Assembly: GCA_021108395.1 (NCBI GenBank)
Contig: JAIOQZ010000041.1
Location: forward strand, 1-60,687
DNA: 60,687 nucleotides
Origin: Candidatus Cloacimonadota bacterium
Lineage (GTDB): Bacteria; Cloacimonadota; Cloacimonadia; Cloacimonadales; JAIOQZ01
Direction of reading: 5' to 3'
Below, piece after piece: positions 23,464 through 54,786 of this stretch; the first letter of the stretch is position 1, and each line of letters begins with the position of its first letter. Made by a program: the position numbers and the translations under genes. The notes beneath the pieces were generated by a model. That model saw nothing but the letters and a program-made list of their open reading frames with translations, made no database searches and was not told the DNA's origin.

Positions 23464-23480
23464 AAAGCCTCCTGTGTTTA

Positions 23481-35659: not shown

Positions 35660-36111
35660 CGGCTTATTTCGCCTGCGGCGGCCAGCACCGCGTCGATTAT
35701 CTGCACATAGCCGGTGCAGCGGCAGAGGTTGCCCTCGAGCGCCTCGATCACATCGTCGCGGTCGGGGGCGGGATTGGCGCGCAGCAGCGCCAGTGCGCTC
35801 ATGAGCATCCCCGGCGTGCAAAAGCCGCATTGCACCGCTCCCTCCTGCAAAAAGGCCTCGCGCAACACCGCCAGCGTGGCATCAGTGCTTTCCACCGTTT
35901 CCACCTGTGCGCCTTCGCATTGCGCCAGAAGCACCAGGCAGCTATTGACGGCGCGGCCATTCAGCAACACCGTGCAGGCTCCGCATTCGCCAATGCCACA
36001 GCCTTCTTTAGCGCCCATGAGGCCCAAGTCGTCACGCAGGGCGTCCAGCAGGCGCAATCCAGGGCGATCCTGCAATTCTATGTCGCGTCCATTCACAGTC
36101 ATGCGAATCAC
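35656..36111 (-). CDS. 2Fe-2S subunit of a xanthine dehydrogenase-family molybdenum hydroxylase
   Basis: 151 residues with all eight cluster ligands: Cys38, Cys43, Cys46 and Cys58 (CGIGECGACTVLLNG...C, plant-type ferredoxin fold) and Cys95, Cys98, Cys130 and Cys132 (CGFCTPG...CRCTGY, helical domain). It passes electrons from the molybdenum site to the FAD domain. Translation probably starts at GTG 36111, which overlaps the upstream stop as GTGA with GGAGG 4 bases away; an ATG nine bases on is the alternative. Coupling to both neighbours indicates one complex and one pathway. Confidence 0.93.
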   Translation of the reverse strand: MIRMTVNGRDIELQDRPGLRLLDALRDDLGLMGAKEGCGIGECGACTVLLNGRAVNSCLVLLAQCEGAQVETVESTDATLAVLREAFLQEGAVQCGFCTPGMLMSALALLRANPAPDRDDVIEALEGNLCRCTGYVQIIDAVLAAAGEISR

Positions 36112-39260: not shown

Positions 39261-39262
39261 GC

Positions 39263-40546
39263 TCACTCCTGTTTGGCAAAACGCTTCCACAGTCTGCGGG
39301 TAATGACCTCGCGGCGGTGGTAGATGTCGGGCAGCGGCGCTGTGGGACAGCCCTCGTCGAGCGTGATTCGGTCGGCCTGCACAACCCAGCGAGCAGCGCT
39401 GCCCGCCAGCCCGTACAGCAGATGTCCCAGCGCGTTCAGCGACGTCACCGGCCCGGCGGGGACATAGTCGAACACGGCGATGTCGGCGCGCTCGCCATCG
39501 CGCACACCGAGGGGGAAGCCCCAGAATTCCTTGAGGCTGTAGCCGCCCAACAGCATCGCGGCGGCCACATCGAAGCCGGAGTCGGGGTCACTGTGCAAAA
39601 GCCGGTGTTGCAGGAACATCGCCCGCCACGAGCGTAATACGTCGCCGCCCATGCCGTCGGTGCCGGTACACAGGCGAACGCCGGCAGCCAGCGCACTGGC
39701 GGCGTCCAGCGGCGGCAGCGCGTTGTTCAGGTTGCTCTCGACCGCCAGCGCCAACCAGACATCACGCCCGCTCAACATGGCCAGCTCGGTGTTGTTCAAC
39801 CGGCAACCATGCGCCAGCAGCGAGCCGGGCCGCAACAGGTCGTGCGCTTCCAGGCGCTCGATGATGGTGCAGCCGTAATTCTTTACAGTGTCCTCAACGT
39901 CTGCTATGCCTTCGGCCACATGGATATGAATGGGCATACCAACACCGGAATTCGCGGTACGGCGAAGCTGCCTATCACTCAGGGTGAACGAAGCGTGCAG
40001 TCCCAGCATGCCTCTGCCGGCGTCGGCGGCAAAGGAAAGGTTCTCGCGGGTTATACGGTCATACACGGCATCGCCGTGCCGACCGCTCCCTTCCCAGCAA
40101 AGCACGGCGCCCACGCCCTGCCCTCGCAGTATGTCGTCGATGATGTGCAGAGAATCTTCGATGAAGGGTACTGAGACATGGTGGTCGAACACGGTGGTTA
40201 CGCCGTGCCGCAGGCTGTCGCGGGCGGCCAGCAGCGCAGAAAGCTTGACCGCTTCTTCGTTGAGCGCTCTGTCGAGCCGCCACCAGAGACCACGCAGGAT
40301 ACCGGTGAAATCGTGCAATGGGCGGCCCGGATCGAGGCCGGTTGCCAGTGTCGAGTAGATGTGGTGGTGAGCATTCACCAGCCCGGGCATCGCCACAGCG
40401 CCGCCGCAATCGATGACGCGGTCTGGCTTGCGGGAGGGTATGTCGAAGCGTACAATCCCCTCTGCGATGAAGATATCGCCACGACGGACCCGCAGGCCTG
40501 CATCGTCCGGCCACACCAGAATAAGATCGCAAAGCTGCAACAGCAT
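39263..40546 (-). CDS. ssnA: SsnA-like amidohydrolase (guanine deaminase/chlorohydrolase group)
   Basis: The ATG at 40546 is chosen for its GGGAGGG site; a longer frame reads only repeat DNA. The 427-residue protein has the metal motif N-A-H60-H-H62 (NAHHHIYSTLATGLD), HIHVAEG, LLAHGC and TGTDGMGGD, which fit the amidohydrolase deaminase group. NAHHHIYS and RGLWWRLDRAL are hallmarks of SsnA, which occurs with selenium-dependent or other molybdenum hydroxylases in clusters like the E. coli ygfK-ssnA-xdhD region. It is the first gene of the cluster and lies two bases from the hydroxylase start. Deamination of an aminopurine is inferred. Confidence 0.86.
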   Translation of the reverse strand: MLLQLCDLILVWPDDAGLRVRRGDIFIAEGIVRFDIPSRKPDRVIDCGGAVAMPGLVNAHHHIYSTLATGLDPGRPLHDFTGILRGLWWRLDRALNEEAVKLSALLAARDSLRHGVTTVFDHHVSVPFIEDSLHIIDDILRGQGVGAVLCWEGSGRHGDAVYDRITRENLSFAADAGRGMLGLHASFTLSDRQLRRTANSGVGMPIHIHVAEGIADVEDTVKNYGCTIIERLEAHDLLRPGSLLAHGCRLNNTELAMLSGRDVWLALAVESNLNNALPPLDAASALAAGVRLCTGTDGMGGDVLRSWRAMFLQHRLLHSDPDSGFDVAAAMLLGGYSLKEFWGFPLGVRDGERADIAVFDYVPAGPVTSLNALGHLLYGLAGSAARWVVQADRITLDEGCPTAPLPDIYHRREVITRRLWKRFAKQE

Positions 40547-40606
40547 AAGCCCTCCCGCCGAATTTGTGAACACAGGGCAGGCTTCGTCAACCTTTTCCTT
40601 AAGAAG

Positions 40607-40796
40607 CAGGGGTTTCACCCCTGAACCCCACCAAACTTTTGCGGAAACTACGTTTCCTATGTACAAATACTTAATTCTTATGACACAAGGATGCGTAGCA
40701 TCCGTTAAAGCTTTTTGTCTTACCTTTTTCTCGAAAAGGTAAGCGGGGTTAGTCGCGTAGCGAAGCGAAGTGAGCCCTCAAAGGGGGCAGTGCCCC
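40607..40796 (+). repeat. dispersed hairpin cassette, copy B
   Basis: Palindromes appear in the same order as in copy A: 40607-40623 (CAGGGGT/ACCCCTG), 40643-40657 (GGAAAC/GTTTCC), 40689-40703 (GGATGC/GCATCC), 40719-40743 (CTTACC.../...GGTAAG) and 40784-40796 (GGGGC/GCCCC). Linker words CTGAACCCC, CCTATGTACA and CCGTTAAAGCTTTTTG are identical to copy A. It occupies the divergent region between ssnA and the C25 peptidase gene, so it must overlap or flank their promoters. Confidence 0.85.
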
Positions 40797-40869
40797 ATCT
40801 TGTTGTAACTTAAGGTTGACAGTGAGAAGCGCACTCCTCAAGTTGCGGGATACGAAATACGGAGGCTTT

Positions 40870-43800
40870 ATGAAGCTGGGAAGTTTGTGGATGTTGTTGC
40901 TGGCAATACCGCTGGCAGCCAATGTGACGCTTTTGGAAGAAACGCCCGCGAGCCTGCTGTTGCAGGTCGATTCCGCCGGCTGGCGCGTCGAGGCGCGGGG
41001 CGAATGGAGTGTTGTCACGAATGACGGCGCGGCCCATCCCGATGAGGTTGGCGCCCCCGACCTGCCATTCCGACAGGCGCTCATCGCTGTGCCGCCCGGT
41101 GGCAGCCTCACCGTCACCGCCCTTCCTGGCCGCACTCAGCGCATCGAACTGAGCGCGCCGATACGTCCGGTGGCCACAGTATATCCACCAATCGGCGACG
41201 AGGTGGACCGCATCGAATACAACCGGCGTCCCGAAGCCTACACTCGCTCCGCCCAGCCGCTCGTCGAGGCGCTACCCTCTTATACCTGGCGCGACTACAC
41301 CCTGGTGCCGGTACGCATCCGCCCTGTGACCTATAACGCAACTACAGGTGTTATCACCCATCACGCCAACCTGCAAGTGCAAATCACCATTCACGGCGAC
41401 ACCAGCATGAGAAGCGCGCCAACCACCGGCCTGCGCGAGGCCGCCGCCGAGGCTATTCTCAACTGGGAAACTGCAAGCGGCTGGCGCGATCCACAACGCA
41501 TCGAGGTGAACTACGCCGACTTCGCGGCCTGGCCTGCCTGGGTACGGTTCGAGATACCACAGGACGGCATCTACGCGCTCACCTACGCCAACCTCAGCGG
41601 CAAGCTCAACCTCGACCTCATCGACCCCGCCGAGTTTCGTCTCTTCAGCACGGGGGGCAACGTGTACGATACCGCTGTCACCGACCCTGGCCTGCCCTTT
41701 GCCGAAGTGCCCATCCTGGTCGAGGATGACGGCGATGGCGGCTTCGACGCCGGTGATCGCATCGTTTTCTATGCCCGCTGCCGCGACGGCGACGACCGCA
41801 GCGACGAAGCCGACTACGATCTCTGGTTCAACCCCTACTCGCAGAACACCGTATATTGGCTCACCTACGGCTCGGACAGTTCCTCTCCACGCCGCATCCC
41901 TGTCGCCCCTGCGCTGACATCGACCGTGACACGCCAAGACAGAGTCGTGCGGGTGAGGCTTGAAGAGGAGAATGATCGCCGCACCGACTCAGGGTTTGAA
42001 TGGTTCATGGATAACCTCAACTACCAGGGCGATCTGACGAGCATTTACACCTACAATTTCCAGGCTGCCAATGTTGTGAACAACCAGCAGCAGCAGCTCT
42101 CCATGGGCATTCAGGAGCATGATGTTCGCGATCCTCATCAGCACCACATCACTGTGGAAGTGAGTGATACAGCGCTGATTGACTATAGCTGGAACGGAAC
42201 CGTTTATAAGACCATTCACGCGGTAGATAATTTCGTCGTCGAGGGCAACAACACGATAGAACTGACTGTCTGGCGCAATGGCCCTCACAGCCTGCTTCTC
42301 GACCGCTTCCTCATCACCTATAACGCAGTTCTGCGCAAGGGTGGCGAGTCCTGCTCGTTCCAGGTGCGCAGCGCCGATGACGGCGACGCGGTGCGCTATA
42401 TCTTTGACGAAGGCTACAACGCCAGTGTTCGCGCCTTTGTCGCCACCGACTTCGACGAGGTAGAGCAAGTATCGCTCACGCCCAGCGCCGATGGATTTTT
42501 CTTCACCTGCGAGGCTCCTGAAGGCTCCTGGGTATGGGTGATTGACAGTGGTGACTACCTCACCCCCAGCGCCATCCAGTCCGTGCAGCCGCTCGATCTG
42601 ACCAGCGGCTCCGTTGGCGCCGAGGCTGTCATCATCGCCCCGGCAGCCTTCATGGACAAGGCAACTGAACTGGCGGGCGTATATCAGTCAACCCTGGGCC
42701 TGCAAACCTTCGTGGCCGAGATGGATGACGTGTTCGAGCAGTTCTCGGGGGGCAACCCCGACCCGGCCGCCATTCGCGGCTTCATGAAGTGGGTCTATGG
42801 CAGCGATTCCGGCCGGCCACTCGCCTATCTCACGCTGCTTGGGGCAGGCGTGTTCGACTGGCGAAACTTCAGCGACTCGAACACCGGCAAGGATCACGTC
42901 ATCGTCTGGCAGATTAGCACCACTTCCTCCGATGATTACTTCGCCTACCTCACGCAGTCAAGCGCACCGGAAATCGGTGTAGGCCGCTATCCCGCCTGGA
43001 CGTCCGAAGACCTGCGCCGTCAAATGGACAACACCCGCGAAAGGATTGAAAACCCCGAATACGGCTGGTGGAGCAATCGCCTGCTCTTTGTGGCCGACGA
43101 CCAGCACAACAGCGGCCAGCATAACCAGGTCGATCATACCGAAAACGCGCAGGCAAACAACGAAGATATTACCAGAGCGGTCATTATCGACATGCTCATG
43201 GCCATAGCATACGACCTGGACGTCTTTCAGAACAAACCGCAGGTGCGCGATCTGATTGTCGATAAAGTGAACGATGGCGTGCTCGTGTTTTATTACACCG
43301 GACATGGCGGCCCCACCAAGCTTGGCGACGAAGACTACTTCACCACCGGCGATGTCACCCGCCTCGAAAACGGCACGCGGCGAATGCCGCTGTTCATTGC
43401 CGCCTCGTGCAGTGTCGGCAAATACGATACCTGGGCGGTCAAGAGCCTCGCCGAGCAGATGGTTTTGTCCAACAAGGGCGGCGCCATAGCTTCGCTGGCA
43501 GCTTCGACGCTGTCCTCCGGCGGGCAAAACACGCAGTTCTTCGGCAACGTTTTCCGAAAGTTGATAAACGCCCGCCTCGACCTGGGTAACGGCCTGGTGG
43601 CCGCCAAAATGATCAGTACCGCCGGCAACGCCCGCAAATACATCCTCTTCGGCGACCCCACCCTGTCCCTCGTCCCGCCCCCGTTTGTCGAGTCGATAAC
43701 CATCGTTGGCGGCGCCGACACTCTCACAGCCTTTGAAACCGCGCACATCGAAGGCGACTTCGGCCTGCCGCTGAATGGCGAAGCCGAGGTGCGGGTCTAT

Positions 43801-44703
43801 GACGCCGACGCGGAACATAGTTTTGAGTGTGACAGCACGCATGTCGCCAACTGGACAGAGTGTGGTGGCGTAATGTTCCGTGGCCGCGCCGGCACTGCCG
43901 ACGGCGAGTTTGAAAGCCGCTTCACCGTTCCCATCGACGTTGACGGTGGCCCGAGCGGACGTATCATCACGCTTTTCAGCAACGAGAATGGCGACAACGT
44001 GTGTTACCTGTCGCCCATCACGGTATCGACTGATGCGCCGGCGGTGGCCAATGTGGACACCCCGGACATCCAGATATGGTTGGAGAGCAAGAGCTTTATC
44101 GAAGGCGACCCGGTGAGTTCGGGGCCGCTGCTCATCGTTTCTATCGCAGATAGCAATGGAGTGAACATCCTGAGCAAACCAGGGCACAAGATTCTGGCGC
44201 GCGCCATGAGAGATGACGAATTCATCGATGTAACCGGCAATTTCATCTACAACCTCGATTCCGGCACAGCGGGAGAGTTTACCTGGGAACTCGAGGGCCT
44301 CTCGACCGGCCCCGACTCGATCGAGATCATCGCTTTCGACAACTTCAACCGGCCAGCCGTGGCTCGTGTCGGCTTCACGGTCAGTGGCGGCGGCGGCAGC
44401 GACGCTATCGGAATCGAGCGACTTTTGCCCTACCCAAACCCGCTGGATGGCCGCGGTGACTTTGTCTTTACCTTCATCCTCACACAACCAGCCAGCGTGA
44501 CCATCGACATCTACACCATCACCGGCCGTAAGATTCGCAGCCTGCGCCTGCCCGGTTCCGAGGCCGGCTACCACCAACTGCCGTGGGATGGCCGCGACGC
44601 CGATGGAGACGATGTGGCCAACAACACCTATTTCTACAGGGTGAAAGCTACCAGCGGCAGCGACTCGGCTGAGAAGATCGGGAAAGTGATGGTACTGCGA
44701 TGA
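40870..44703 (+). CDS. secreted gingipain-type C25 cysteine peptidase with T9SS sorting domain
   Basis: ATG 40870 lies behind GGAGG. The 1277-residue product has a signal peptide (KLGSLWMLLLAIPLAAN), a C25 pro-domain (about 25-230: DLPFRQALIAVPPGG), a beta-rich middle and the caspase-like C25 catalytic domain (about 600-960) with the dyad His812 (YYTGHGGPTK) and Cys847 (IAASCSVGKYD). The C-terminus (PYPNPLDGRGDFVF, TITGRKIRSLRL, NNTYFYRVKATSG, KVMVLR) is a FlgD-like type A sorting domain. It may be a secreted protease or a PorU-like sortase that processes T9SS cargo; the presence of its own sorting domain does not decide. Its stop overlaps the next start (ATGA). Confidence 0.92.
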   Translation: MKLGSLWMLLLAIPLAANVTLLEETPASLLLQVDSAGWRVEARGEWSVVTNDGAAHPDEVGAPDLPFRQALIAVPPGGSLTVTALPGRTQRIELSAPIRPVATVYPPIGDEVDRIEYNRRPEAYTRSAQPLVEALPSYTWRDYTLVPVRIRPVTYNATTGVITHHANLQVQITIHGDTSMRSAPTTGLREAAAEAILNWETASGWRDPQRIEVNYADFAAWPAWVRFEIPQDGIYALTYANLSGKLNLDLIDPAEFRLFSTGGNVYDTAVTDPGLPFAEVPILVEDDGDGGFDAGDRIVFYARCRDGDDRSDEADYDLWFNPYSQNTVYWLTYGSDSSSPRRIPVAPALTSTVTRQDRVVRVRLEEENDRRTDSGFEWFMDNLNYQGDLTSIYTYNFQAANVVNNQQQQLSMGIQEHDVRDPHQHHITVEVSDTALIDYSWNGTVYKTIHAVDNFVVEGNNTIELTVWRNGPHSLLLDRFLITYNAVLRKGGESCSFQVRSADDGDAVRYIFDEGYNASVRAFVATDFDEVEQVSLTPSADGFFFTCEAPEGSWVWVIDSGDYLTPSAIQSVQPLDLTSGSVGAEAVIIAPAAFMDKATELAGVYQSTLGLQTFVAEMDDVFEQFSGGNPDPAAIRGFMKWVYGSDSGRPLAYLTLLGAGVFDWRNFSDSNTGKDHVIVWQISTTSSDDYFAYLTQSSAPEIGVGRYPAWTSEDLRRQMDNTRERIENPEYGWWSNRLLFVADDQHNSGQHNQVDHTENAQANNEDITRAVIIDMLMAIAYDLDVFQNKPQVRDLIVDKVNDGVLVFYYTGHGGPTKLGDEDYFTTGDVTRLENGTRRMPLFIAASCSVGKYDTWAVKSLAEQMVLSNKGGAIASLAASTLSSGGQNTQFFGNVFRKLINARLDLGNGLVAAKMISTAGNARKYILFGDPTLSLVPPPFVESITIVGGADTLTAFETAHIEGDFGLPLNGEAEVRVYDADAEHSFECDSTHVANWTECGGVMFRGRAGTADGEFESRFTVPIDVDGGPSGRIITLFSNENGDNVCYLSPITVSTDAPAVANVDTPDIQIWLESKSFIEGDPVSSGPLLIVSIADSNGVNILSKPGHKILARAMRDDEFIDVTGNFIYNLDSGTAGEFTWELEGLSTGPDSIEIIAFDNFNRPAVARVGFTVSGGGGSDAIGIERLLPYPNPLDGRGDFVFTFILTQPASVTIDIYTITGRKIRSLRLPGSEAGYHQLPWDGRDADGDDVANNTYFYRVKATSGSDSAEKIGKVMVLR

Positions 44704-45554
44704 GAACCCTGTTCTTCGCCCTGATAGCAGGCATCTTTCTTGGCGCGTGTGGCAACCCGCCCGACGTACTGGTCGTGGGCGCAGTCGAGAAGCAGATTGG
44801 CGCCTTCCCGCTCGAGTTCGCCCTGAATACGGGCATACTGTCCGCCGATCACTTCCAGATACGCCGCTTCAGCAGTGAGGTACGCCTCGCTACGGCCCTG
44901 GCGGAGGGACGTGTTGACGCCGCAATGCTGCCGTTTCTGCACTTCGCCGGCGTTGATGCGCCCGTCAAACTCTTCAGCAGCATGCAGCGCGAAGGCGGGG
45001 GCATCGTTTGCGAAGCCTCCGAGTTCGCAGACACCAGGGGCTACCACGTTGGCGTTCACACCGGCTGCATGGTTCCAATGTTGAGCGTGCTTGTAACCGA
45101 CTCGCTGCGGCTGGGCTGGGAACTGACCGAATATGACGACCGTGAAGACATGGCGAACGCATTGCAAACAGGCGAAATGCAGGCCCTGGCCGACGCTGTA
45201 CCCTATCTGCTGGGCTACGGAGATGAAAACGACGGCATTCTCTGGTTCAGCGAAGTTCTGCCGGGCTACCCCGCGGCAGACCTGCTGGCCACCAACCATG
45301 CCATCGAGCACAAGCGGGCGCTGCTGGACGAGGCCGTCGAGGCCGCAATCGCCGCCGCCAGCTTCATCAACGCCTACCCCAACGAGGCGAACGACCGCTT
45401 TCTGACGATATATCCGTTCAGCCGCCGCGCCATCCGCAAGACGCTCACCCGCACCTGGTATTACACCGCCATCGATGAGCAATCCAGAGCTTTCCGCCAC
45501 AGGGCAGCCGCCATGCTGGGCACGAACACCGACTCGCTGTACATCACACCCTGA
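44700..45554 (+). CDS. NMT1/SsuA-like periplasmic substrate-binding lipoprotein
   Basis: 284 residues with lipobox LGAC at Cys17. The fold pattern (VLVVGAVEKQIGAFPLEFALNTGILS, LAEGRVDAAMLPFLHFA, GYHVGVHTGCM, LGWELTEYD, ATNHAIEHKRALLDEAVEA) matches the ABSSB/NMT1 family used by taurine, sulfonate and thiamine-precursor importers. No permease or ATPase gene is adjacent. The gene is translationally coupled to the C25 peptidase, so the two may work together at the cell surface or periplasm; that is inference. It is followed by a bidirectional terminator. Confidence 0.8.
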   Translation: MRTLFFALIAGIFLGACGNPPDVLVVGAVEKQIGAFPLEFALNTGILSADHFQIRRFSSEVRLATALAEGRVDAAMLPFLHFAGVDAPVKLFSSMQREGGGIVCEASEFADTRGYHVGVHTGCMVPMLSVLVTDSLRLGWELTEYDDREDMANALQTGEMQALADAVPYLLGYGDENDGILWFSEVLPGYPAADLLATNHAIEHKRALLDEAVEAAIAAASFINAYPNEANDRFLTIYPFSRRAIRKTLTRTWYYTAIDEQSRAFRHRAAAMLGTNTDSLYITP

Positions 45555-45636: not shown

Positions 45637-47907
45637 CTATTTGAGCAGCGCCATCTTGTGTGTTATGACATGATCGCCAGCCGTAAGCCGCGCGAAATAC
45701 ACGCCGGAGGCGACAGCGACGCCGTCGTCGCTCACGCCGTTCCAGGTGAACGTGCGTGCGGTGGTTACTTCATTGTCGAGCAGGGTGACGATGCGCTGGC
45801 CGCGTACGTTGTAGATGGCCAGTATCACCGGCTGGTTCTTTGCATCCTCGGGGATCGACAGAGCCAGCGTGGTGGTCGGGTTGAACGGGTTTGGATACGC
45901 GCTCAGTCCGTAGTTGACGACAACCGGAGTTCCTTCATCGTCGATGCCGGTCATGTTGAAATACAGACATGGCAGCGGCCCGCCATAGCAACCCTGGTCA
46001 CCCGTGAGAGTGCCCTGGGCCGGGAACAGCGGATTGCCAGGGTTGTCCAGGTCTTCGAGGTCGTTGTACATCGCGTCGGGATTGGCCGCATCGACACTGA
46101 GTGATGTTGCGGCGAGCACCCAACTGGCTTCGACGTCCATGAACTCGATGCCGTCACCATCGGTGGGAGCCACAAACAGCGGATCCGCGTCGATGTTGCC
46201 CGTACCGTCATAGCCGCCCGATATATTACTGTAAGTAATGATGGGGGTGGCGCTGAAGATATATACGGGTGAGCTGTTCTGACTGCGGACGATGCAGTTG
46301 GTGACTGTGCCTTCCGACTGGAAGAACGACAGATCGCCGTTGGTGGAGCCGGTGCTGAGGTTGTTGGCGATGGTGTTGTTCACCATTGTAACCTCGGAAC
46401 CCTGCTTGGCGCCGATGGCGGAGGCGAAGCTGCCCTCGTTGTTCACCATCAGGTTGCCGGTGAGGGTGGCAACGGAGTTATCCATGCCGATTGCGCCGGA
46501 ATTGTTCTGTGACTCGTTGCCATAGAACAAACTGGCGTTCACCTCGACGTCAGTCGAGCCAACCATGTGGATAGCGCCGCCGCGGCTGGAGCCGTTGTTG
46601 CCGGTGAACACACAATCCTCGACCACCACCTCGGAGTCCTCGATGAAGAGAGCCGTGGCGATGGCGTCCTCGAACCAGCAGTTGCTGAAGGAGCTGGCGC
46701 TTTCGGCAAAGCGGACTTCAAAACCGCTCCATTCGTTACGGCCGGCGCCGGTGAAGTAGGTCATCGACTCGACACCGGACTGACCGGCCTGGATGCTGCC
46801 CGCCACCTCGAACTTGGCGTCGTTGGACAATACGACCTCGACGCCCGGCGCTATGATGAGCTGGCTGCCAGCGTCCACCATCACGTCACCGATGACGTTG
46901 TAGGGGCTGTAATCGGTAACCCAGACGCCGCTGGCACCACCGAACACGGCACTGCCGTCCAGCACGGTGATGTAGTCGGTCATCTCAACCTCAGCGGTCT
47001 CGCCGTCGGTGTCAGTGACTGTCAGGGAGACATCGTAGCTGCCGGGGGTGGTGTAGAGCCAGTAGGGATTCTGGCTGTTCGAGTCAACCGTGCCGTCGCC
47101 GTCCAGATCCCAATCCCAACCCACGATGTCGCCGGGGGGAATCGAGCTGTCGGTGAACTGTACGCCAAGCTGCGCCGGGCCGCTGGTGATATTGCTGGTG
47201 AACATCGCCGTGAGCGCCGTGTTGCATGTCTGGCGAGCCTGTAGAATCTGCTTGTTGCCAGTTGATCCACCCCAATCCTGCACCATGACAACAGCTTTCA
47301 GATCGGCCAGAACCCAGCTTGCATCTCCATCGAAGGTATGAGTGAAAATACCGGAATCACCGATCTGGGAAAGCGTGAAGTCTTCGTAATGGTATCTCCC
47401 CACAGTGCAGAAGTAGCTGTCTGTCCAGTACTTGGCAACAATAAAGACCAGCTTGTTCTGGGTTGTGGGCAAAGCGGCCATCACCTCGCAGTTGGCCGAG
47501 AGGAAATAGTCGCCATCGGCGGTAAGGCCAAAAGCGACGCTCATCTCGATTGGCGAGTCGTAGGTGACCAGATTGTTGAATACGGGGGTATAGTATGGCA
47601 GCATATTGGTGCCGCCGCCAACGACGTCTTCGGTTCCGCCAAACTGAGCATGGGGAATGCCGCCAACGCCGTACATAGAAGCGCGAGTCGAATAACCAGG
47701 ACTGGTGTGCTGGTTGCCCTCCCAAATAATCGGGATGAACAGATCCGGTTGATTTGCGCTTAATCCTGCCAGACCCTCACGGGCGTCTGGACAATATCCG
47801 CAACCTGTACTCGTGAAGACTTCTCCGACGACGTTGTACTGCACAGCCTGCAGTCCCAGCATACCGCCGAGAAGCATCACCAGCAATGCCCATTTCGCAA
47901 TGCGCAT
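45637..47907 (-). CDS. T9SS cargo: Omp28-like thiol domain, PKD domain, beta-helix
   Basis: ATG 47907 follows GGAGG at 9 bases; the 756-residue protein has a signal peptide to about residue 22. The N-terminal 220 residues resemble Omp28/thioredoxin-fold proteins, with a redox pair Cys36-GY-Cys39 in EVFTSTGCGYCPDAREGL and IPHAQFGG as the cis-Pro loop. A PKD-like domain follows (about 245-330: VQFTDSSIPPGDIVGWDWDLDGDG), then a right-handed beta-helix (about 340-650: repeats such as DCVFTGNNGSSRGGAIHM). The C-terminus (YPNPFNPTTTLAL, NVRGQRIVTLLDN, ASGVYFARLTAGD, KMALLK) is a T9SS-type sorting domain. A surface thiol-disulfide or adhesive role is inferred. A 166-base gap separates it from the operon upstream. 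Confidence 0.87.
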   Translation of the reverse strand: MRIAKWALLVMLLGGMLGLQAVQYNVVGEVFTSTGCGYCPDAREGLAGLSANQPDLFIPIIWEGNQHTSPGYSTRASMYGVGGIPHAQFGGTEDVVGGGTNMLPYYTPVFNNLVTYDSPIEMSVAFGLTADGDYFLSANCEVMAALPTTQNKLVFIVAKYWTDSYFCTVGRYHYEDFTLSQIGDSGIFTHTFDGDASWVLADLKAVVMVQDWGGSTGNKQILQARQTCNTALTAMFTSNITSGPAQLGVQFTDSSIPPGDIVGWDWDLDGDGTVDSNSQNPYWLYTTPGSYDVSLTVTDTDGETAEVEMTDYITVLDGSAVFGGASGVWVTDYSPYNVIGDVMVDAGSQLIIAPGVEVVLSNDAKFEVAGSIQAGQSGVESMTYFTGAGRNEWSGFEVRFAESASSFSNCWFEDAIATALFIEDSEVVVEDCVFTGNNGSSRGGAIHMVGSTDVEVNASLFYGNESQNNSGAIGMDNSVATLTGNLMVNNEGSFASAIGAKQGSEVTMVNNTIANNLSTGSTNGDLSFFQSEGTVTNCIVRSQNSSPVYIFSATPIITYSNISGGYDGTGNIDADPLFVAPTDGDGIEFMDVEASWVLAATSLSVDAANPDAMYNDLEDLDNPGNPLFPAQGTLTGDQGCYGGPLPCLYFNMTGIDDEGTPVVVNYGLSAYPNPFNPTTTLALSIPEDAKNQPVILAIYNVRGQRIVTLLDNEVTTARTFTWNGVSDDGVAVASGVYFARLTAGDHVITHKMALLK

Positions 47908-48073
47908 AGTTGATGCCTCCAAAGTTACATTGTGGTTTAACATAATCAAATACTGACGTAATCACCAGGCTTCCCCGGCTGTTCCCCCAGATTACGTTGC
48001 GTTGCGACATGAACATTCCTTATACATGTTTGTAAGACAGTCTATTGAACATTGTTCACCTGTCAACTGATAA

Positions 48074-49441
48074 TTATTTCAGCAGTAGCATCCGCCGCGT
48101 CTCTATCTGGCCATCTACCTGCAAGCGGTAAAGATAGACACCACTGGCAACCGCCCTGCGGTTGTCGTCGAGGCCATCCCACGCCACGACGTGAGCGCCC
48201 GCCGAAAGGCTGTGGCCGACCAGGTGGCGCACCTTGCGGCCACGAACGTCGAACACAACAAGCTCTACGAAGGCTGGCGCGGCCAGGCTGAAAGCGATGT
48301 CGGTGCTGGGATTGAACGGGTTGGGTCGGTTCTGCTCGAGGTGGACGGCCGTCGGCACACCGGCATCGTCGTCAACGCCGAGATCGGCAGTGGTGAAAGT
48401 GAACGGCACCACCAGCGGCAGCGGACGCGCTTGCGGGGTGAGGTGGAATACGTACTCGAATGTGCAGGCCTGTGTCACCTGCGGAATGAGCAGATGGAAC
48501 ATGATCCATTCGCCCGATTCGAGGGTGAAGCTATAGGGGCCGGCATCGGGATTGAAGCAGCCCGCGCCACCCTGCGAATCCTCATAGCAATACATGAGGT
48601 TCATGCCGTCGGGCACGCCCGAGCTCCCCATATCAATCTGAAAATCGCCGTCTTCGCCCATGTTGACGATGCTGAAAAACTCGCCGTCATACTGGTAGTT
48701 GCCGTTCTCTTCCCAGGAAGGACCGACGACGTCGCGGTCGAACGGCACTGCCGGTTGAAGATCGTTGGCGGGAGCGGCATAGTCGGTGGCCGCCTGTAGG
48801 TAGCCCCCCTGCTCGTTGCATATGACCACCAGCAGGTGCAGCATGTCGGTGTTCCACGAGTCATCGATGATGAAGTCGCCGGAGAGCGTCTCGACGCTGC
48901 CGGGGCCGCCCAGCGTCAGCGTGTGGTGACTGACGGCGCGGGCAACGTGCGTGTGCCCGGTGGCCACGTTGTCCTCGAACAGCACCACCTGCACCGGCGT
49001 GTCGATGAGCAGGAGTTCCTCGTCATGCATGGTGAAGGCCGCTTCCCAGTCACCGGAAACGTGATCGAAGCTGGTCACCTCGACCTGCACCGGCGAAGCG
49101 TTGTAATAGTGGTTGAAAATCGGCGCTTCGTAGGCCGTGTCGCCAACAACCATCTCGTCGCGGTCAAAGACGGCCGTTGGCAGCACGGCAATGTCCAGCA
49201 TATCGTGCATGTTGCTGATGTCCGGGCTGCCGTACTCGCCGATGTAGTAGCGAACGCTGACTATCTCGCTTCTGCTGAAGTCGTCATCTACCACGTCCAG
49301 GCAGGCGTGGGCTTCATCGCAGGCCGCAGAGCCAACCTCGGTGCCAAGCTCGATAAGTGTCAGCTTGGGCCAGAAAGTCATGCTGGCGCATAACATGCCC
49401 GCCAGGGCAAGGAACAGAAAGAGAGCTAAGTGTCGTTTCAT
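48074..49441 (-). CDS. T9SS cargo with degenerate Omp28-like domain
   Basis: 455 residues beginning with a signal peptide (KRHLALFLFLALAGMLCA). The N-terminal domain (TLIELGTEVGSAACDEAHACLDVV, then VRYYIGEYGSPDI and LPTAVFDRDEMVVG) aligns by eye with the Omp28/thioredoxin fold of the neighbouring genes, but the CxxC is replaced by Cys41-x5-Cys47, so classical redox activity is unlikely or changed. The middle is beta-rich. The C-terminus (NRPNPFNPSTDIAFS, DVRGRKVRHLVGH, ASGVYLYRLQVDG, RRMLLLK) is a sorting domain. It begins 8 bases after the beta-barrel gene, so it is the last member of the dsbD operon. Confidence 0.82.
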   Translation of the reverse strand: MKRHLALFLFLALAGMLCASMTFWPKLTLIELGTEVGSAACDEAHACLDVVDDDFSRSEIVSVRYYIGEYGSPDISNMHDMLDIAVLPTAVFDRDEMVVGDTAYEAPIFNHYYNASPVQVEVTSFDHVSGDWEAAFTMHDEELLLIDTPVQVVLFEDNVATGHTHVARAVSHHTLTLGGPGSVETLSGDFIIDDSWNTDMLHLLVVICNEQGGYLQAATDYAAPANDLQPAVPFDRDVVGPSWEENGNYQYDGEFFSIVNMGEDGDFQIDMGSSGVPDGMNLMYCYEDSQGGAGCFNPDAGPYSFTLESGEWIMFHLLIPQVTQACTFEYVFHLTPQARPLPLVVPFTFTTADLGVDDDAGVPTAVHLEQNRPNPFNPSTDIAFSLAAPAFVELVVFDVRGRKVRHLVGHSLSAGAHVVAWDGLDDNRRAVASGVYLYRLQVDGQIETRRMLLLK

Positions 49442-49449
49442 GAGTCCTC

Positions 49450-50922
49450 CTAAAATGTCGTGGTCAATTCGACTTTGATTCCCTCGAACTGGCTCTGCCG
49501 GCGGCAGATGCCGTTGCGACAGACCTTGCCGCCTTTTTGACGTCCACCAAATACACGCAGGCTCGTGCTGTCATCTATAGGAAGTGCAATTTCCGCGCCG
49601 AGCCAAACCGGCTGGTCGGCTAAAGCATCACCATGGCCATAGCGCATCTCGGCTGTAACGGACAGCGACACCTCGCGCCAGGCGATGTCGGCCTGCAACA
49701 GCGGCTCCCAGTGATACTCGCGGGACGCGCCATCGGTTTTGTCCTCGTGCTCCCACTGGGCCATGACAGTCATGGGAAACTGCCCCGCCACGAAGTCGGC
49801 GGCAAGCTGAGGGGTGAGTTTCTTATGCCACTTCTCGCCCGCTTCGTCACGGGTTTCAATGTGCTCGTACTCGGCTGTGAGGGTGATGGGGCCTATGTCA
49901 CTGACTGACTTGAAATAAAAATCTGCCAGGGTGTAGTTGTCATCGTGACTCCAAGCCTCGGCATAATTGACGACAACCTCGCTGTAATAATCGGGACGCC
50001 AGGTAAGCTCACCCATGAAGCCCGCCTCGTCCTCGCCCGCAAAGATGCCGCTCTCGCTCAGTGGTTCGCCGCTGTGGTTCACCGTCGGCATGTCGGACAG
50101 CGGGCTGATGGAATCGTTGCGCTGGTGAAAGTCGTCGTAGTCCTTGCAGGCGGCCAGCAGGGTGAACTTGCCGACGTAGAGCGTGGCATCGGCGTAGATG
50201 GCGGCGCCGTCACGGTCGGTTTCACCCTCTTTGGAAGCTTCGAGCATGGCGTACTCGAGATAAGCGTCGAACAGGTCGCTGGTGTAGCCCAGGCGGCTGG
50301 CGTCGATGATAACCTCGCCGTAAGTGAAGGTGGGATCGTTGAGGTCAAGCGTCTGCATCGCGATATAAGACCCGCCCAGCTTGAAACCATAGGGCAGGTT
50401 CACTTCGCCGTCGATGCCGGCGGCCGTTTCGTCGCGGGTCACGCCGTCGGGGAACTCGATGGGGCGCGCTCCGTAAAACGCCTTCGAGATACCCCTGGGG
50501 TCTGACCAGCGCAGCTTGGCGCCCTCAAGCCGTGTGTCGATGTCAAACTCGCGGTCTTCCCAGGCACGCAGCACAAGGCCACGGCCGATGGTCTCATCCA
50601 TAGTGCCGGCGTGTAGAGTAAGCGTCTTGGTATCGTAAGTCACCCAGCGTTCGTCCCAGTCATAACCAAGATCGTCTGGCGAGAGATTCTCGATTGTCGC
50701 GTCGCCCTTGTATTCGGGCAGGCGGGCAATGAAGCTCTGCCCCACCGTCACGTTGCCGTAGCGCAGGCGGAAGGTGAGTTTGTCGTAGAAATAGTTATTG
50801 AGGGAGTCCTCGGCGGCGCTGTAGGCATACTCGGCGTAGTTGAGGCCAGAGATGGAAATCTCGGCGGACACGGCGACGCCTGCTGCGGCCAGCAGAATCA
50901 GAAGCGCGAAGTACCGTTTCAT
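49450..50922 (-). CDS. probable outer-membrane beta-barrel protein (DUF6029-like)
   Basis: 490 residues with a signal peptide (KRYFALLILLAAAGVAVSA) followed by alternating amphipathic beta strands throughout (for example LTFRLRYGNVTVGQSFIARL, DAYLEYAMLEASKEG, PITLTAEYEHIETRD) and a C-terminal Phe after IKVELTTTF, the classic barrel-insertion signature. The motif TMDETIGRGLVLRAWEDREFDIDTRLEG resembles DUF6029 outer-membrane proteins of Bacteroidota. Near the end CRNGICRRQ could form a disulfide. Start overlaps the tlpA stop (TAATG), so it is translationally coupled to a thiol reductase. It may be the outer-membrane partner of the redox proteins; substrate unknown. Confidence 0.75.
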   Translation of the reverse strand: MKRYFALLILLAAAGVAVSAEISISGLNYAEYAYSAAEDSLNNYFYDKLTFRLRYGNVTVGQSFIARLPEYKGDATIENLSPDDLGYDWDERWVTYDTKTLTLHAGTMDETIGRGLVLRAWEDREFDIDTRLEGAKLRWSDPRGISKAFYGARPIEFPDGVTRDETAAGIDGEVNLPYGFKLGGSYIAMQTLDLNDPTFTYGEVIIDASRLGYTSDLFDAYLEYAMLEASKEGETDRDGAAIYADATLYVGKFTLLAACKDYDDFHQRNDSISPLSDMPTVNHSGEPLSESGIFAGEDEAGFMGELTWRPDYYSEVVVNYAEAWSHDDNYTLADFYFKSVSDIGPITLTAEYEHIETRDEAGEKWHKKLTPQLAADFVAGQFPMTVMAQWEHEDKTDGASREYHWEPLLQADIAWREVSLSVTAEMRYGHGDALADQPVWLGAEIALPIDDSTSLRVFGGRQKGGKVCRNGICRRQSQFEGIKVELTTTF

Positions 50923-51407
50923 TATTCTTCACCACCCGCCAGCACGAGCTTTATCTGCTCTTCTATCTTTTCTTCGTCGCCCTTGCGGTAGCCCTCGTGC
51001 GACCACACCACCTCGCCCTCGGCGCTCAGGATGTAAGTGCTGGGCGGGTTGGTGGCGTTCATGCTCTCATAGACGGTCTTTTCGGGGTCAAGCAGCGTGA
51101 GGAAGCTGAAGCGGTTCTTCACCTCCTTGATGGCCTGCGCCTTCTTGCCCGGCTTATCAATCGAGATGCAGATGATGGTGATGCCTTCGTAGGCGTCTTG
51201 CAGTTCCGAGAGCCTGGGCATCTCCTTCTTGCAGTTGACGCACCAGGTGGCCCAGAAGTTGATGAGCACGGGGCCTTCGGCGAGGAGGTCGGAGAGCGTC
51301 ACCTGGTTGCCGTCGATGTCTTCGAGCGAGAAGTCGGCAATCGGTTCGGCGGCGAGAATCGTCACGGCAAACAGCATGGCCAGCGTTACTACAAGAGTCG
51401 CTTTCAT
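50922..51407 (-). CDS. TlpA/ResA-like periplasmic thiol-disulfide oxidoreductase
   Basis: ATG 51407 behind AGGAG gives a 161-residue protein with signal peptide (KATLVVTLAMLFAVTILAA) and a thioredoxin fold with WCVNC (Cys56, Cys59), INFWATW, and NPPSTYIL as the cis-Pro loop. TlpA/ResA proteins reduce periplasmic disulfides using electrons from DsbD/CcdA, which is encoded two genes upstream. It starts 10 bases after the Omp28-like lipoprotein stop and overlaps the following beta-barrel gene. Confidence 0.93.
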   Translation of the reverse strand: MKATLVVTLAMLFAVTILAAEPIADFSLEDIDGNQVTLSDLLAEGPVLINFWATWCVNCKKEMPRLSELQDAYEGITIICISIDKPGKKAQAIKEVKNRFSFLTLLDPEKTVYESMNATNPPSTYILSAEGEVVWSHEGYRKGDEEKIEEQIKLVLAGGEE

Positions 51408-51417
51408 CGGGAACTCC

Positions 51418-52797
51418 TTATTGTTGCTCAATCGGTATTTCGATAGCGTTATATATCTTGTTCACGGCGGGGTCATGGTCGGTGGTTACGGTTTGCAGCC
51501 ACAGATATACTATGGCGTCTGCGGGGACGCTTTCCACGCCGGTGAAGTCGAAGCTCACGGGTTGGCTCAGGTCAACACCGTCCAGCGGCAGTTGGCCTTT
51601 CATCGTTACAATCTGGTGATAGAGATTGCCATTGTTGCCGGTGGCGGATTCCTCGACCAACGCCCACTTGAGGTAGAGGTCTGTCTGCGGCAGGGCGGTG
51701 GCGATGCTGACGACGCCGCTGGGGGCTGCCTCGCCCAGCGTGTGGCTGAACCCGCTGAACTGCGCCAGCGCCTCCTGCGCACCGTAAAACTCGATCTTGT
51801 CGCGGTACGCCTGCTCCAATGCGCCCCAGGTGCCGATGAGCACGCTCTGCCCCTGAAAAACGGCGGTGGGAGCCGAACCGTTGCCATACCAGGTGTTCAG
51901 GTCGTTGTTGTCGCTATAGAACTCGTCGCCGACGTGATATTCGACGTACAACAGGCGGTCGCCGAACTCCTGCTTGAGGGTGTGCAGCGCCTCCTCGGCC
52001 TGCGGGCAATTGACGCACCAGGTGGCGGTGAACAGCTCGGCGAAGACCTTCTGGCGGGTCTCGTCCGGTTCTTCCTGCCCGTTGCCGCACAGAATGTAGC
52101 CAGCGCCCGCGATGCGCGCCCGCGAACCCAGCGTGATGTCAAGATCGACGCTGGTGTCGATAATGCCCAGCTCGAAATCGAGTGACCACGGATCACAGTC
52201 AGTCACGCTCACTGTAAGCTGGTCAGTTGCCTCTTGCATGATAGCGCCGAGCAGTGAAAGCACGTTTTGCATCGTACTGCCGTCGTGGTAGTAATCCAGC
52301 GCGAACCAATCGCCGAGGATGATGTTGGCTCCCAGTAGATAGGCTTCGACATCGGCGGCGAATCGCCCGGCGTAATCCTCGACGCTCTCATCTACCTTGT
52401 TGCCCGCGAGGATGTAACCGTCACCCTCCTCGCGCAGAACGTCAACATAGCTGCGGCGTTGCTCTGTCCTGGCCATCTCCCAGCGCAGGTCATATTGGAT
52501 GCGCACGCCGCCGGTGAATTCCTCGGAGCGTTGCAGTTCCATCTCGACGAGAGTTGCATCCACCCCTGAGAAGGGATGTAACAGCCAGATGGCCTGACCG
52601 GCGTCGAGGCCGTTGTTGTTGTAGTCGGTGGCATAGAAAGATTGAACAGCCAATGTGTCGCCTGTCTGGGCGTAGTTGAAGGCGGCAGCGCGGTAGTCGG
52701 CGAAGAACGTCTCGACCGCCGGACCGAAGGTGTTCTCGAAGCGGTTGCAAGACACCAGCGCCAGCAGCGCAAAGGAAAGCAGCAGTACTCGTTTCAT
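51418..52797 (-). CDS. Omp28-like lipoprotein with C-terminal thioredoxin-fold domain
   Basis: The start ATG 52797 is preferred to a TTG two codons upstream because AGGA is 7 bases before it. The 459-residue product has lipobox LVSC at Cys17. The first 240 residues are an unknown alpha/beta domain. From about residue 247 an Omp28/thioredoxin-like domain begins (KVFAELFTATWCVNCPQAEEALHTL) with the pair Cys261-VN-Cys264 and GSAPTAVFQG as the cis-Pro loop. Omp28-family proteins are outer-membrane lipoproteins of Bacteroidota. The neighbours dsbD (10 bases upstream) and tlpA suggest that its cysteines are kept reduced by DsbD. Confidence 0.85.
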   Translation of the reverse strand: MKRVLLLSFALLALVSCNRFENTFGPAVETFFADYRAAAFNYAQTGDTLAVQSFYATDYNNNGLDAGQAIWLLHPFSGVDATLVEMELQRSEEFTGGVRIQYDLRWEMARTEQRRSYVDVLREEGDGYILAGNKVDESVEDYAGRFAADVEAYLLGANIILGDWFALDYYHDGSTMQNVLSLLGAIMQEATDQLTVSVTDCDPWSLDFELGIIDTSVDLDITLGSRARIAGAGYILCGNGQEEPDETRQKVFAELFTATWCVNCPQAEEALHTLKQEFGDRLLYVEYHVGDEFYSDNNDLNTWYGNGSAPTAVFQGQSVLIGTWGALEQAYRDKIEFYGAQEALAQFSGFSHTLGEAAPSGVVSIATALPQTDLYLKWALVEESATGNNGNLYHQIVTMKGQLPLDGVDLSQPVSFDFTGVESVPADAIVYLWLQTVTTDHDPAVNKIYNAIEIPIEQQ

Positions 52798-52807
52798 AGT
52801 CAAATCC

Positions 52808-54568
52808 TTACTTCAAAGGTTCGAGAGCGGCATGAATGTCGCCCTTCGTCAATATCTCGCTGAACACGAACGGTTCGCTCTGCCCGGGGTAATACAAGAG
52901 GTATAACGGAACGCCGGCGCGATCGTAACGCTTCAGCCACTCGGCGATGACGGGATCCTTGCGGGTGTTGTCGGCCTTCACCATCTCGACGCCATGCTCG
53001 CTTAAGGCATTTTCGATATCGTCGGTGAACAGCACCGCCGTTTCGTTGGTTTTGCAGGTGAGACACCACTCGGCGCCGAAATCGACGAAGACGGCCTTGC
53101 CATCATCTCGATGCTGCTGCACCAGCTCTGGACTGAACTCCTGCCATCCCTGGGGGATGTGGCCGGCATCGGTGTTTTCATCGAAGCGCAGCAACCAGAA
53201 AGCAGAGCCGACGATGACCCCTATGGCCACCAGCAGGGCAATCCACTGTTGCACCTTGCCGTGATGCGGCCTGGCGAAGCGGCCGTATATCCACGCGGCC
53301 ATGCTGAGGAACAGCATGAACCACAGTACGCGCAGGAAGTTGGCCCCGCCCAGCAGCGCATAGGCGATGGTGAGCAGCCACAGCGCCGTGCCCAGCAGCA
53401 AAAAGGCCATCGCCTCGCGGAAGACGTTCATCCACTCGCCCGGCTTGGGTAGCTTCTGAATGACCCCAGGCCAGAATGCCAGCAGAATGAACGGCAGGGC
53501 CAGCCCCAGCCCGATGAGCAGAAAGAACGGCAGAATGACGCCCGGCGGCTGCGTGAAGGCGAACCCCAGCGCCGGCGCCAGCAGTGGCGCAGTGCATGGC
53601 GTGGCCAGCAACACCGCAAACACTCCGCTGAAGAAAGAACCGGAGTGCCCGCCCTTGCTGCTCGCCTTGTTGGCCATCGACATGCCGGGAGCCGAAATGA
53701 TGAAGACATCGAACAGCGAGAGCGAAAAGACGAAGATGAGTGATGAGAAGGCGATGACGAAGGTCGCGTTCTGCATCTGGAAGCCCCAGCCGGCGCCGAT
53801 GCCCATGCTCTTGAGGGTGATGACAACGCCCGCCATGAGGGCGAACGAGACCAGGATGCCGCCTGTGTAGGCAAAGCTGCCCTTCATTATTTCGCGGCGG
53901 TCGTGCTGCGACTGGCTCACCAGGTGCATCGCCTTGATGGACAGCACCGGCAGTACGCACGGCATGATGTTGAGGATAACGCCGCCGACAAACGCCATCA
54001 GCAGGTACTTGATGATATTCCACACTTTTGAACCGCCGCCGGAGTCGCCACCAATGCTGCCATAGCCGTCAGCAGACCTCTCCAGCAAGAACATGGCGGT
54101 ATTTAACGCTTCCTCAACGCTACCGCCAGAGCCGCCGCCGGTGACATCGACCGTGGCCGTGTGAACGGCTTCGTCTGGCGGGAAACACGTGGCTTCCTCG
54201 CAAATCTGCCAGGCCACAGTGACTGGAATCTCGTGAGTCCCGGCTTGCACAGTGGACGCCACCGTGAAGGGAAGCGTCAGCGTGAAGTCGTGGTGATAAA
54301 CCTCGAAGCCCCATTCGTCCACCTCGGCTTCGGGGTAAACCGCAGGCCCGAACACGATGCCCTCGGGGGCGTCAACCTCGACGTAGAGGTAATCTTCCTG
54401 TTTCTGCATGTGCATACCCGCCGGAACGCTGTATAGCACATGCAAAACGCCCTCACCGCCCGCCTCGACGCCAGAGGGCTCAACGGTGATGGTGATGCTC
54501 GGCGACTGAGCCGACAGGCCCAGCGCCAGCATCGCAAAGAAAAGGACAAGTATGACGTTCTGCCTCAC
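52808..54568 (-). CDS. dsbD: thiol:disulfide interchange protein DsbD
   Basis: GTG 54568 is taken as start because GGAGG lies 6 bases before it; an ATG seven codons upstream lacks a site. The 586-residue protein is a full three-part DsbD: signal peptide, N-terminal immunoglobulin-like domain with the pair CEEATC, a polytopic membrane domain with the two essential cysteines in NIMPCVLPVLSIKAM and LLATPCTAPLLAPA, and a C-terminal thioredoxin domain with WCLTC (Cys502, Cys505). It carries electrons from cytoplasmic thioredoxin across the inner membrane. It heads a five-gene minus-strand operon of thioredoxin-like exported proteins. Confidence 0.95.
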   Translation of the reverse strand: MRQNVILVLFFAMLALGLSAQSPSITITVEPSGVEAGGEGVLHVLYSVPAGMHMQKQEDYLYVEVDAPEGIVFGPAVYPEAEVDEWGFEVYHHDFTLTLPFTVASTVQAGTHEIPVTVAWQICEEATCFPPDEAVHTATVDVTGGGSGGSVEEALNTAMFLLERSADGYGSIGGDSGGGSKVWNIIKYLLMAFVGGVILNIMPCVLPVLSIKAMHLVSQSQHDRREIMKGSFAYTGGILVSFALMAGVVITLKSMGIGAGWGFQMQNATFVIAFSSLIFVFSLSLFDVFIISAPGMSMANKASSKGGHSGSFFSGVFAVLLATPCTAPLLAPALGFAFTQPPGVILPFFLLIGLGLALPFILLAFWPGVIQKLPKPGEWMNVFREAMAFLLLGTALWLLTIAYALLGGANFLRVLWFMLFLSMAAWIYGRFARPHHGKVQQWIALLVAIGVIVGSAFWLLRFDENTDAGHIPQGWQEFSPELVQQHRDDGKAVFVDFGAEWCLTCKTNETAVLFTDDIENALSEHGVEMVKADNTRKDPVIAEWLKRYDRAGVPLYLLYYPGQSEPFVFSEILTKGDIHAALEPLK

Positions 54569-54786
54569 TGTAAACCTCCGCATATACAACTATACATCTT
54601 GTTAACACCATCAACTGTTATGATTATGAAAGAATTCAAGCTCCACGCCCTTCTGATACCCTTGGTCACTGCTTCGTCGTATTTTCAGATCGAAGAGCCT
54701 GTCTCCGCAGAAAAAACGCTTGCGTGTTTAACACGTTACGGCTAAATGTACAATCAACGATGTGTACTTTGCAAGAAGGAGACCAG
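54569..54786. promoter_or_regulatory. divergent promoter region with 13-base palindrome
   Basis: This 218-base gap separates dsbD from the debranching-enzyme gene. A perfect palindrome CGTGTT-T-AACACG lies at 54723-54735 and may bind a dimeric regulator. No clear sigma-70 pair is evident; TTGCGT (54720-54725) with TAAATG 17 bases on is weak. A ribosome site AAGGAG lies before ATG 54787. Confidence 0.35.

What the first reader, a model, noticed from the sequence alone, without database searches (positions are those of the whole stretch)
45637..54568. A DsbD-driven thiol pathway reaching from inner membrane to cell surface
Consecutive minus-strand genes encode DsbD (all three redox parts intact), an Omp28-like lipoprotein with WCVNC, a TlpA reductase with WCVNC, a beta-barrel with a possible C-terminal disulfide, and a secreted T9SS cargo with an Omp28-like but degenerate cysteine region; 166 bases further on lies a second T9SS cargo with an intact CGYC. 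Gaps are 8-11 bases or overlapping from dsbD to the first cargo. DsbD feeding electrons to periplasmic thioredoxin-like proteins is established; feeding of outer-membrane lipoproteins and sorting-domain cargo is inference. I know of no described system with this composition, but could not search.
Basis: partly seen in the sequence, partly recalled or inferred. Interest (0 to 1): 0.75.

Follow-up and report, generated by a model that had tools for sequence, protein, structure and literature searches.

The report
Thiol relay reaching the outer membrane
A gene cluster conserved across many bacterial phyla pairs a thioredoxin-like protein inside the cell envelope with a large outer-membrane barrel bearing a cysteine pair on its outer face and with thioredoxin-like surface or lipid-anchored proteins, which suggests an undescribed route for carrying thiol reducing power out to the cell surface.

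Summary
The six genes, their cysteines and their 8-11 base gaps are as described. They form a real unit: dsbD-Omp28-tlpA-barrel-cargo is kept across the order (Cloacimonadota). The core, TlpA + DUF6029 barrel + thioredoxin-fold Omp28 protein, recurs in Bacteroidota, Zixibacteria, WOR-3, Latescibacterota, Balneolia, Holophagae and Myxococcota-like genomes.

New facts: (1) TlpA is fused to the barrel's N-terminus in several genomes. (2) The barrel models as about 24 strands with C468/C473 at the tip of its last extracellular hairpin, present in every complete barrel checked. (3) The first Cys of the Omp28 CxxC is selenocysteine in many relatives, whose genomes carry tRNA-Sec. (4) Where DsbD is missing, its N-domain plus a membrane 4Fe-4S protein takes its place. 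(5) The first cargo's invariant cysteines are C285/C295, not the degenerate pair.

Best explanation: a reducing pathway, DsbD to TlpA docked at the barrel to surface thioredoxins and cargo. Delivery to TlpA is well supported; crossing the outer membrane is inferred. No published description was found in the open-access library.

The parts
52808..54583 (-). dsbD: inner-membrane electron donor with three redox cysteine pairs (128/133, 209/330, 507/510)
   Evidence: Pfam DsbD_TM 2.9e-22, Thioredoxin_7 6.2e-15, DsbD_N 1.4e-07; exactly six Cys; start codon not certain (ATG 54583 or GTG 54568)
51418..52797 (-). Omp28-like lipoprotein, lipobox LVSC (C17), C-terminal half with thioredoxin-like domain
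   Evidence: NCBIfam lipoprot_Omp28 1.6e-08, below its curated cut-off; thioredoxin hits in PDB; model best matches HBP35; CxxC 34/34, lipobox Cys 33/34 in relatives
52006..52017 (-). CVNC active-site motif (C261, C264) of the lipoprotein
   Evidence: read directly; invariant in relatives
50922..51407 (-). tlpA: periplasmic TlpA/ResA-type thioredoxin
   Evidence: AhpC-TSA 5.7e-21; CxxC 36/36; fused to the barrel in some relatives
51231..51242 (-). CVNC active-site motif (C56, C59) of TlpA
49450..50922 (-). DUF6029 outer-membrane beta-barrel, predicted about 24 strands
   Evidence: PF19494 1.6e-24; AlphaFold2 pLDDT 90.1, pTM 0.84; Foldseek to 24-strand ushers and MtrB
49504..49521 (-). CRNGIC: cysteine hairpin (C468, C473) in the last extracellular loop of the barrel
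   Evidence: 35/35 in Cloacimonadota; hairpin strands 465-469 and 472-476; also in Bacteroidota DUF6029
48074..49441 (-). T9SS cargo 1: Omp28-like domain with degenerate Cys region, beta domain, sorting domain
   Evidence: FlgD_ig 1.2e-07; T9SS type A sorting domain 4e-06; next gene after the barrel in most relatives
48557..48589 (-). invariant cysteine pair C285/C295 of cargo 1
   Evidence: 32/32 aligned homologues
49301..49321 (-). degenerate Omp28-like cysteine region (C41, C47) of cargo 1; WCxxC in several relatives
45637..47907 (-). T9SS cargo 2: Omp28-related selenoprotein family (Cys form), PKD domain, sorting domain
   Evidence: Omp28_seleno 4e-18, below its cut-off; T9SS type A sorting domain 8.7e-10; UxxC in relatives
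47791..47802 (-). CGYC (C36, C39) of cargo 2; first Cys is selenocysteine in relatives

Best explanation
This is an extracytoplasmic reducing pathway with a dedicated outer-membrane branch. DsbD (elsewhere a membrane 4Fe-4S protein with a separate DsbD N-domain) delivers electrons to the periplasmic thioredoxin TlpA. TlpA docks at the periplasmic side of a large DUF6029 barrel. The barrel passes reducing equivalents, by thiol-disulfide exchange involving its extracellular C-x4-C hairpin, to thioredoxin-fold Omp28 proteins at or near the surface (lipoprotein and T9SS cargo), which reduce or isomerise disulfides of surface proteins or reduce external substrates. Shown by comparison: the conserved unit, the TlpA-barrel fusions, the conserved cysteines, the Sec/Cys exchange, the donor swap. 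Inferred: direction of flow, the step across the outer membrane, the final substrate.
For: Synteny across the order and the core triad in other phyla. TlpA adjacent to the barrel in 31 of 34 testable Cloacimonadota loci and fused to it in the other 3; in 22 of 31 Bacteroidota loci next to it on the same strand, plus L253 with one gene between, and in 4 divergent. TlpA-barrel fusions keep the TlpA CxxC. Barrel C-x4-C in every complete homologue found without using the motif, placed on the extracellular side of a confident model. Selenocysteine at the first CxxC position in 37 ORFs (mostly Omp28-like; a few are other thioredoxin-like proteins), with tRNA-Sec above cut-off in 8 of 8 tested Sec-type genomes and 0 of 5 tested Cloacimonadota genomes of family f10, whose loci are Cys-type. 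DsbD exchanged for an N-domain plus NapH-like 4Fe-4S protein. In one Bacteroidota group the Omp28 slot is filled by an unrelated T9SS-tailed Redoxin (L269). Secretion machinery present: PorU next door, SprA in the genome.
Against: No biochemistry. No conserved cysteine lies inside the barrel to bridge the membrane, so TlpA would have to enter the lumen or the hairpin would have to fold inward. The lipoprotein carries Asp at +2 in most relatives (about 24 of 34), an inner-membrane retention signal in enterobacteria, so it may act before TlpA rather than at the surface. CxNGxC hairpins are also good structural disulfides. Not every Bacteroidota locus has all three genes. The window's cargo 1 has lost the CxxC of its Omp28-like domain.
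Confidence: 0.5

Rival explanations
1. Barrel maturation system: TlpA and the Omp28 lipoprotein are disulfide reductase/isomerase helpers that set the structural disulfide of the barrel hairpin (and of the cargo pair) during assembly, as Dsb proteins do for LptD. No electrons cross the outer membrane.
For: The hairpin sequence suits a structural disulfide; periplasmic TlpA-type isomerases are known (own knowledge); cargo 1 has its own invariant pair.
Against: One-to-one TlpA-barrel fusions suit a permanent partner better than a catalytic helper; T9SS-tailed and seleno Omp28 proteins act after export.
Confidence: 0.2
2. Redox-regulated transporter: the DUF6029 barrel imports or exports a small molecule or metal (or a polysaccharide), and TlpA/Omp28 gate it by opening and closing the hairpin disulfide or handle a thiol or metal cargo.
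For: DUF6029 was linked to polysaccharide export barrels (PMC9603273); AlgE and TonB-receptor folds among Foldseek hits; HBP35, the nearest structure, also binds hemin (PMC2907840).
Against: No polysaccharide or uptake genes were recognised as recurring beside the triad, though most flanking genes were not annotated; the constant neighbours are thiol proteins; the donor swap points to electron supply.
Confidence: 0.17
3. Export barrel: the 24-strand barrel is an usher-like translocon that puts Omp28 lipoproteins on the surface, with TlpA keeping them reduced for passage.
For: Closest folds are the FimD and PapC ushers; Omp28 genes are constant neighbours.
Against: Omp28 cargos in Cloacimonadota carry T9SS sorting domains and so have another exit; fusion with TlpA is not explained.
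Confidence: 0.08

Closest known systems
DsbD/CcdA/ScsB reducing pathways of the bacterial envelope
   Same: Inner-membrane DsbD with three redox pairs and a TlpA/ResA-type thioredoxin partner
   Different: Known pathways end in the periplasm (own knowledge); here the constant partner is an outer-membrane barrel, sometimes fused to TlpA, plus secreted proteins; the donor can be a 4Fe-4S protein
Pneumococcal CcdA-Etrx-MsrAB2 extracellular reducing pathway (PMC3914529)
   Same: Electrons from a DsbD-like protein to TlpA-type thioredoxins acting on the cell surface
   Different: Gram-positive, no outer membrane to cross, no barrel
HBP35 of Porphyromonas gingivalis (PMC2907840, PMC3120885, PDB 5Y1A)
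   Same: T9SS cargo with an active thioredoxin domain; best structural match to the Omp28 lipoprotein
   Different: Single protein; no electron donor or barrel partner described in the passages read
MtrCAB outer-membrane electron conduit
   Same: Architecture: periplasmic carrier, large sheath barrel, surface lipoprotein; MtrB is a Foldseek hit (6r2q_B, E 4e-7)
   Different: Haem chemistry and unrelated carriers; the fold match is generic for large barrels
DUF6029 (PF19494) family
   Same: The barrel is a member
   Different: No established function; polysaccharide export was only proposed (PMC9603273)

Membership tests
DsbD | N-domain, transmembrane domain and C-terminal thioredoxin domain, each with a cysteine pair | tested here: met
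   the PRK00293 score of 167 is below its 330 cut-off, so distant from that subfamily
TlpA/ResA-type thioredoxin | AhpC-TSA/Redoxin fold family, export signal, CxxC, cis-Pro | tested here: met
   CxxC 36/36 and P122 36/36; signal peptide read from sequence
DUF6029 (PF19494) | Curated Pfam score | tested here: met
   86.9 bits vs 27
Omp28 lipoprotein family (NF033782) | Curated score of 150 bits | tested here: not met
   34.1 bits, local match over the CxxC region only; described here as Omp28-like, not filed as a member
Omp28-related selenoprotein (NF045500), cargo 2 | Curated score of 200 bits; Sec codon | tested here: not met
   65.9 bits; Cys form here, UxxC in relatives
T9SS type A cargo | C-terminal sorting domain, and T9SS in the genome | tested here: met
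   cargo 1 26.7 and cargo 2 38.4 bits vs 23; SprA 496 bits combined, PorU 540.5 vs 420
Outer-membrane electron conduit (works like) | Electron transfer across the outer membrane | not testable with these tools
   needs biochemistry; TlpA-barrel fusion is only consistent with it
Thioredoxin fold of the Omp28-like domain | Sequence/structure match to thioredoxins | tested here: met
   for the lipoprotein; the cargo domains were compared by profile only

The most novel reading that the evidence does not exclude
A thiol-based counterpart of MtrCAB: TlpA sits as a plug in a 24-strand barrel and passes electrons to an extracellular dithiol and on to surface thioredoxins and selenoproteins. This would be the first thiol-disulfide relay shown to cross an outer membrane, spread over many phyla and fed by DsbD or by a membrane iron-sulfur protein.
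Probability: 0.3. Interest if true: 0.93.

Novelty: new variant of a known kind. Interest (0 to 1): 0.8.

Why it matters
Envelope reducing pathways are thought to stop in the periplasm of diderm bacteria. A conserved unit that couples TlpA to an outer-membrane barrel and to secreted seleno/thioredoxins would extend them to the cell surface and give functions to DUF6029 and Omp28-like proteins, which are widespread and poorly characterised. It also points to membrane iron-sulfur proteins as alternative donors for extracytoplasmic thiol reduction. The module is present in Bacteroidota, so it can be tested in organisms that can be grown.

Tried and rejected
Only here: rejected by synteny. PorU as part of the unit: it lies beyond a plus-strand gene and is not recurrent beside the operon. 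DsbD as the defining part: rejected, since other phyla lack it beside the triad and some Cloacimonadota replace it. I first read the 288-309 aa protein in those variants as CcdA; Pfam shows a Fer4_5/NapH-like 4Fe-4S protein. Literature searches for Omp28 + TlpA + DUF6029 and Omp28 + selenoprotein gave nothing relevant. The P. gingivalis PG2173/PG2174 lead gave only proteome lists. In the pattern-selected set motif conservation is circular, so only the homology-selected sets were used for that claim. SECIS elements were not established (one search folded the regions without a control). Phylum name: from record titles, plus the 2,246,820-base relative recalled from memory as Ca. Cloacimonas acidaminovorans.
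Full report
What is there. Six minus-strand genes at 45637-54583 encode DsbD, an Omp28-like lipoprotein, TlpA, a DUF6029 barrel and two T9SS cargo proteins. DsbD has exactly three redox pairs. Both cargos pass the T9SS type A sorting-domain cut-off, and the genome has SprA and PorU, so T9SS export is credible. T9SS in Cloacimonadota is also noted in PMC11285876.

The unit is conserved. Forty genomes were searched with the barrel alone; 38 have it, nearly always once. Their neighbourhoods show DsbD - Omp28 lipoprotein - TlpA - barrel - cargo 1 (- cargo 2) across 11 families of the order, mostly with gaps of -20 to +50 bases. PF19494 is found in 103 of 125 genomes of the phylum. The phylum is Cloacimonadota by the titles of matching public records.

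The core is wider than the phylum. A pattern for the barrel's C-terminus found it in records titled Zixibacteria, WOR-3/Stahlbacteria, Latescibacterota, Coatesbacteria, Balneolia, Holophagae, Electryonea, Deltaproteobacteria and Nannocystaceae, with TlpA usually directly upstream. Independently, the Pfam model alone found DUF6029 in 56 of 198 genomes drawn from the phylum of a Bacteroidetes record. In 31 of those loci TlpA is adjacent on the same strand in 22, one gene away in one (L253), and divergent in 4; the automatic tally finds an Omp28-like gene in 24, and reading the maps adds others that fall outside its distance or strand limits, including T9SS-tailed thioredoxins. In Cloacimonadota TlpA is adjacent in 31 of 34 testable loci and fused to the barrel in the other three. 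The window's genome has only five TlpA-like hits in all, so this is not chance.

Fusion. In G019, G032 and G029 (three genera) one open frame of about 645 residues carries a signal peptide, a complete TlpA domain with WC-x-PC, a short linker and the whole barrel. L122, and probably L141, titled Proteobacteria and Deltaproteobacteria, carry TlpA and barrel in one frame too. This is the strongest evidence that TlpA and the barrel are physical partners.

Barrel. The model (pLDDT 90.1, pTM 0.84) has about 24 long strands joined by short turns on one side. C468 and C473 lie across the tip of hairpin 465-469/472-476 between the last two strands, which is on the extracellular side if the C-terminal Phe is periplasmic as in other outer-membrane proteins (strand count and topology are my reading of the secondary structure, no coordinates were available). 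Closest folds are the ushers FimD and PapC; MtrB and AlgE also match. The C-x4-C pair is in 35 of 35 Cloacimonadota barrels and in the Bacteroidota barrels with an intact C-terminus. The other window cysteine, C259, is not conserved.

Omp28-like proteins. The lipoprotein profile hits thioredoxins, and its moderate model best matches HBP35 (E 1.2e-9), whose recombinant form has thioredoxin activity that depends on its two cysteines (PMC2907840). In 37 ORFs of the modules, mostly Omp28-like, the first Cys of CxxC is encoded by TGA with the frame continuing, including lipoproteins of WOR-3 and T9SS cargo 2 of several Cloacimonadota. tRNA-Sec scores above cut-off in all 8 tested genomes with such genes, and in none of 5 tested genomes of family f10, whose loci show only Cys forms; it is also present in G013 and in the window's genome, whose own proteins are Cys forms. 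Sec/Cys exchange at this position is the usual mark of a catalytic redox residue (established knowledge).

Electron supply. In G019, G032, G011 and G029 a free DsbD N-domain (about 150 aa, by similarity to the window DsbD; no Pfam hit of its own) lies next to a NapH-like membrane 4Fe-4S protein and a TlpA, in place of DsbD in the first three; G029 also has a complete DsbD nearby. A related 4Fe-4S protein sits beside the barrel in WOR-3 and Latescibacterota. Different donors at the same place suggest that the module needs electrons.

Cargo 1. Its front Omp28-like domain varies: WCxxC in several f10 genomes, degenerate here, absent in others. A beta domain with C285/C295 is kept in 32 of 32. This pair, not the degenerate one, is the candidate substrate or carrier.

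What is inferred. Direction of flow (outward, because DsbD is a reductant source), the passage across the outer membrane and the final acceptor are not shown. The lipoprotein's location is open: Asp at +2 in most relatives could mean inner membrane. A structural role of the barrel disulfide, with TlpA as maturation factor, remains the main rival.

Known work. Precedents exist for surface thioredoxins (HBP35, PMC2907840) and for a DsbD-like donor feeding surface thioredoxins in a Gram-positive (PMC3914529). Nothing found in the open-access library describes this module; subscription papers were not searchable. The novelty grade is for what is shown, a DsbD-type pathway with an undescribed outer-membrane branch; a proven trans-outer-membrane relay would be categorically new.

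Noticed in passing
L047:5062-5988 and 6173-6625 (-); L046:10348-11853 (+); L127:2088-2963 (-): A free DsbD N-domain beside a NapH-like membrane 4Fe-4S protein (L046, L047), and a related 4Fe-4S protein beside the barrel in WOR-3 (L127): a possible iron-sulfur substitute for the DsbD membrane domain.
   Followed up: partly
L040, L044, L050, L135, L140 (one search list): A second class of UxxC protein with a Redoxin-like context (FWGxxxUxGC and similar) near the barrel, apparently further selenoproteins.
   Followed up: no
window 40816-44703 (+): PorU, the T9SS sortase (540 bits, above cut-off), lies close downstream of cargo 2 on the opposite strand, with a solute-binding-like lipoprotein gene at 44700-45554 between.
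   Followed up: no
L248 (G157:C49): A Bacteroidota DUF6029 gene broken into two frames (two separate PF19494 matches): a frameshift or assembly error.
   Followed up: no
window 2869-7725 (+) and 21112-23484 (-): A large subtilase with a HYDIN-type Ig domain and an FG-GAP protein with a C-terminal FlgD_ig domain: further possible secreted proteins.
   Followed up: no
window 36108-39290 (-): A fused molybdopterin-binding and FAD-binding xanthine dehydrogenase-type protein beside amidohydrolases at 34310-35830 and 39263-40666: probable purine or related catabolism.
   Followed up: no
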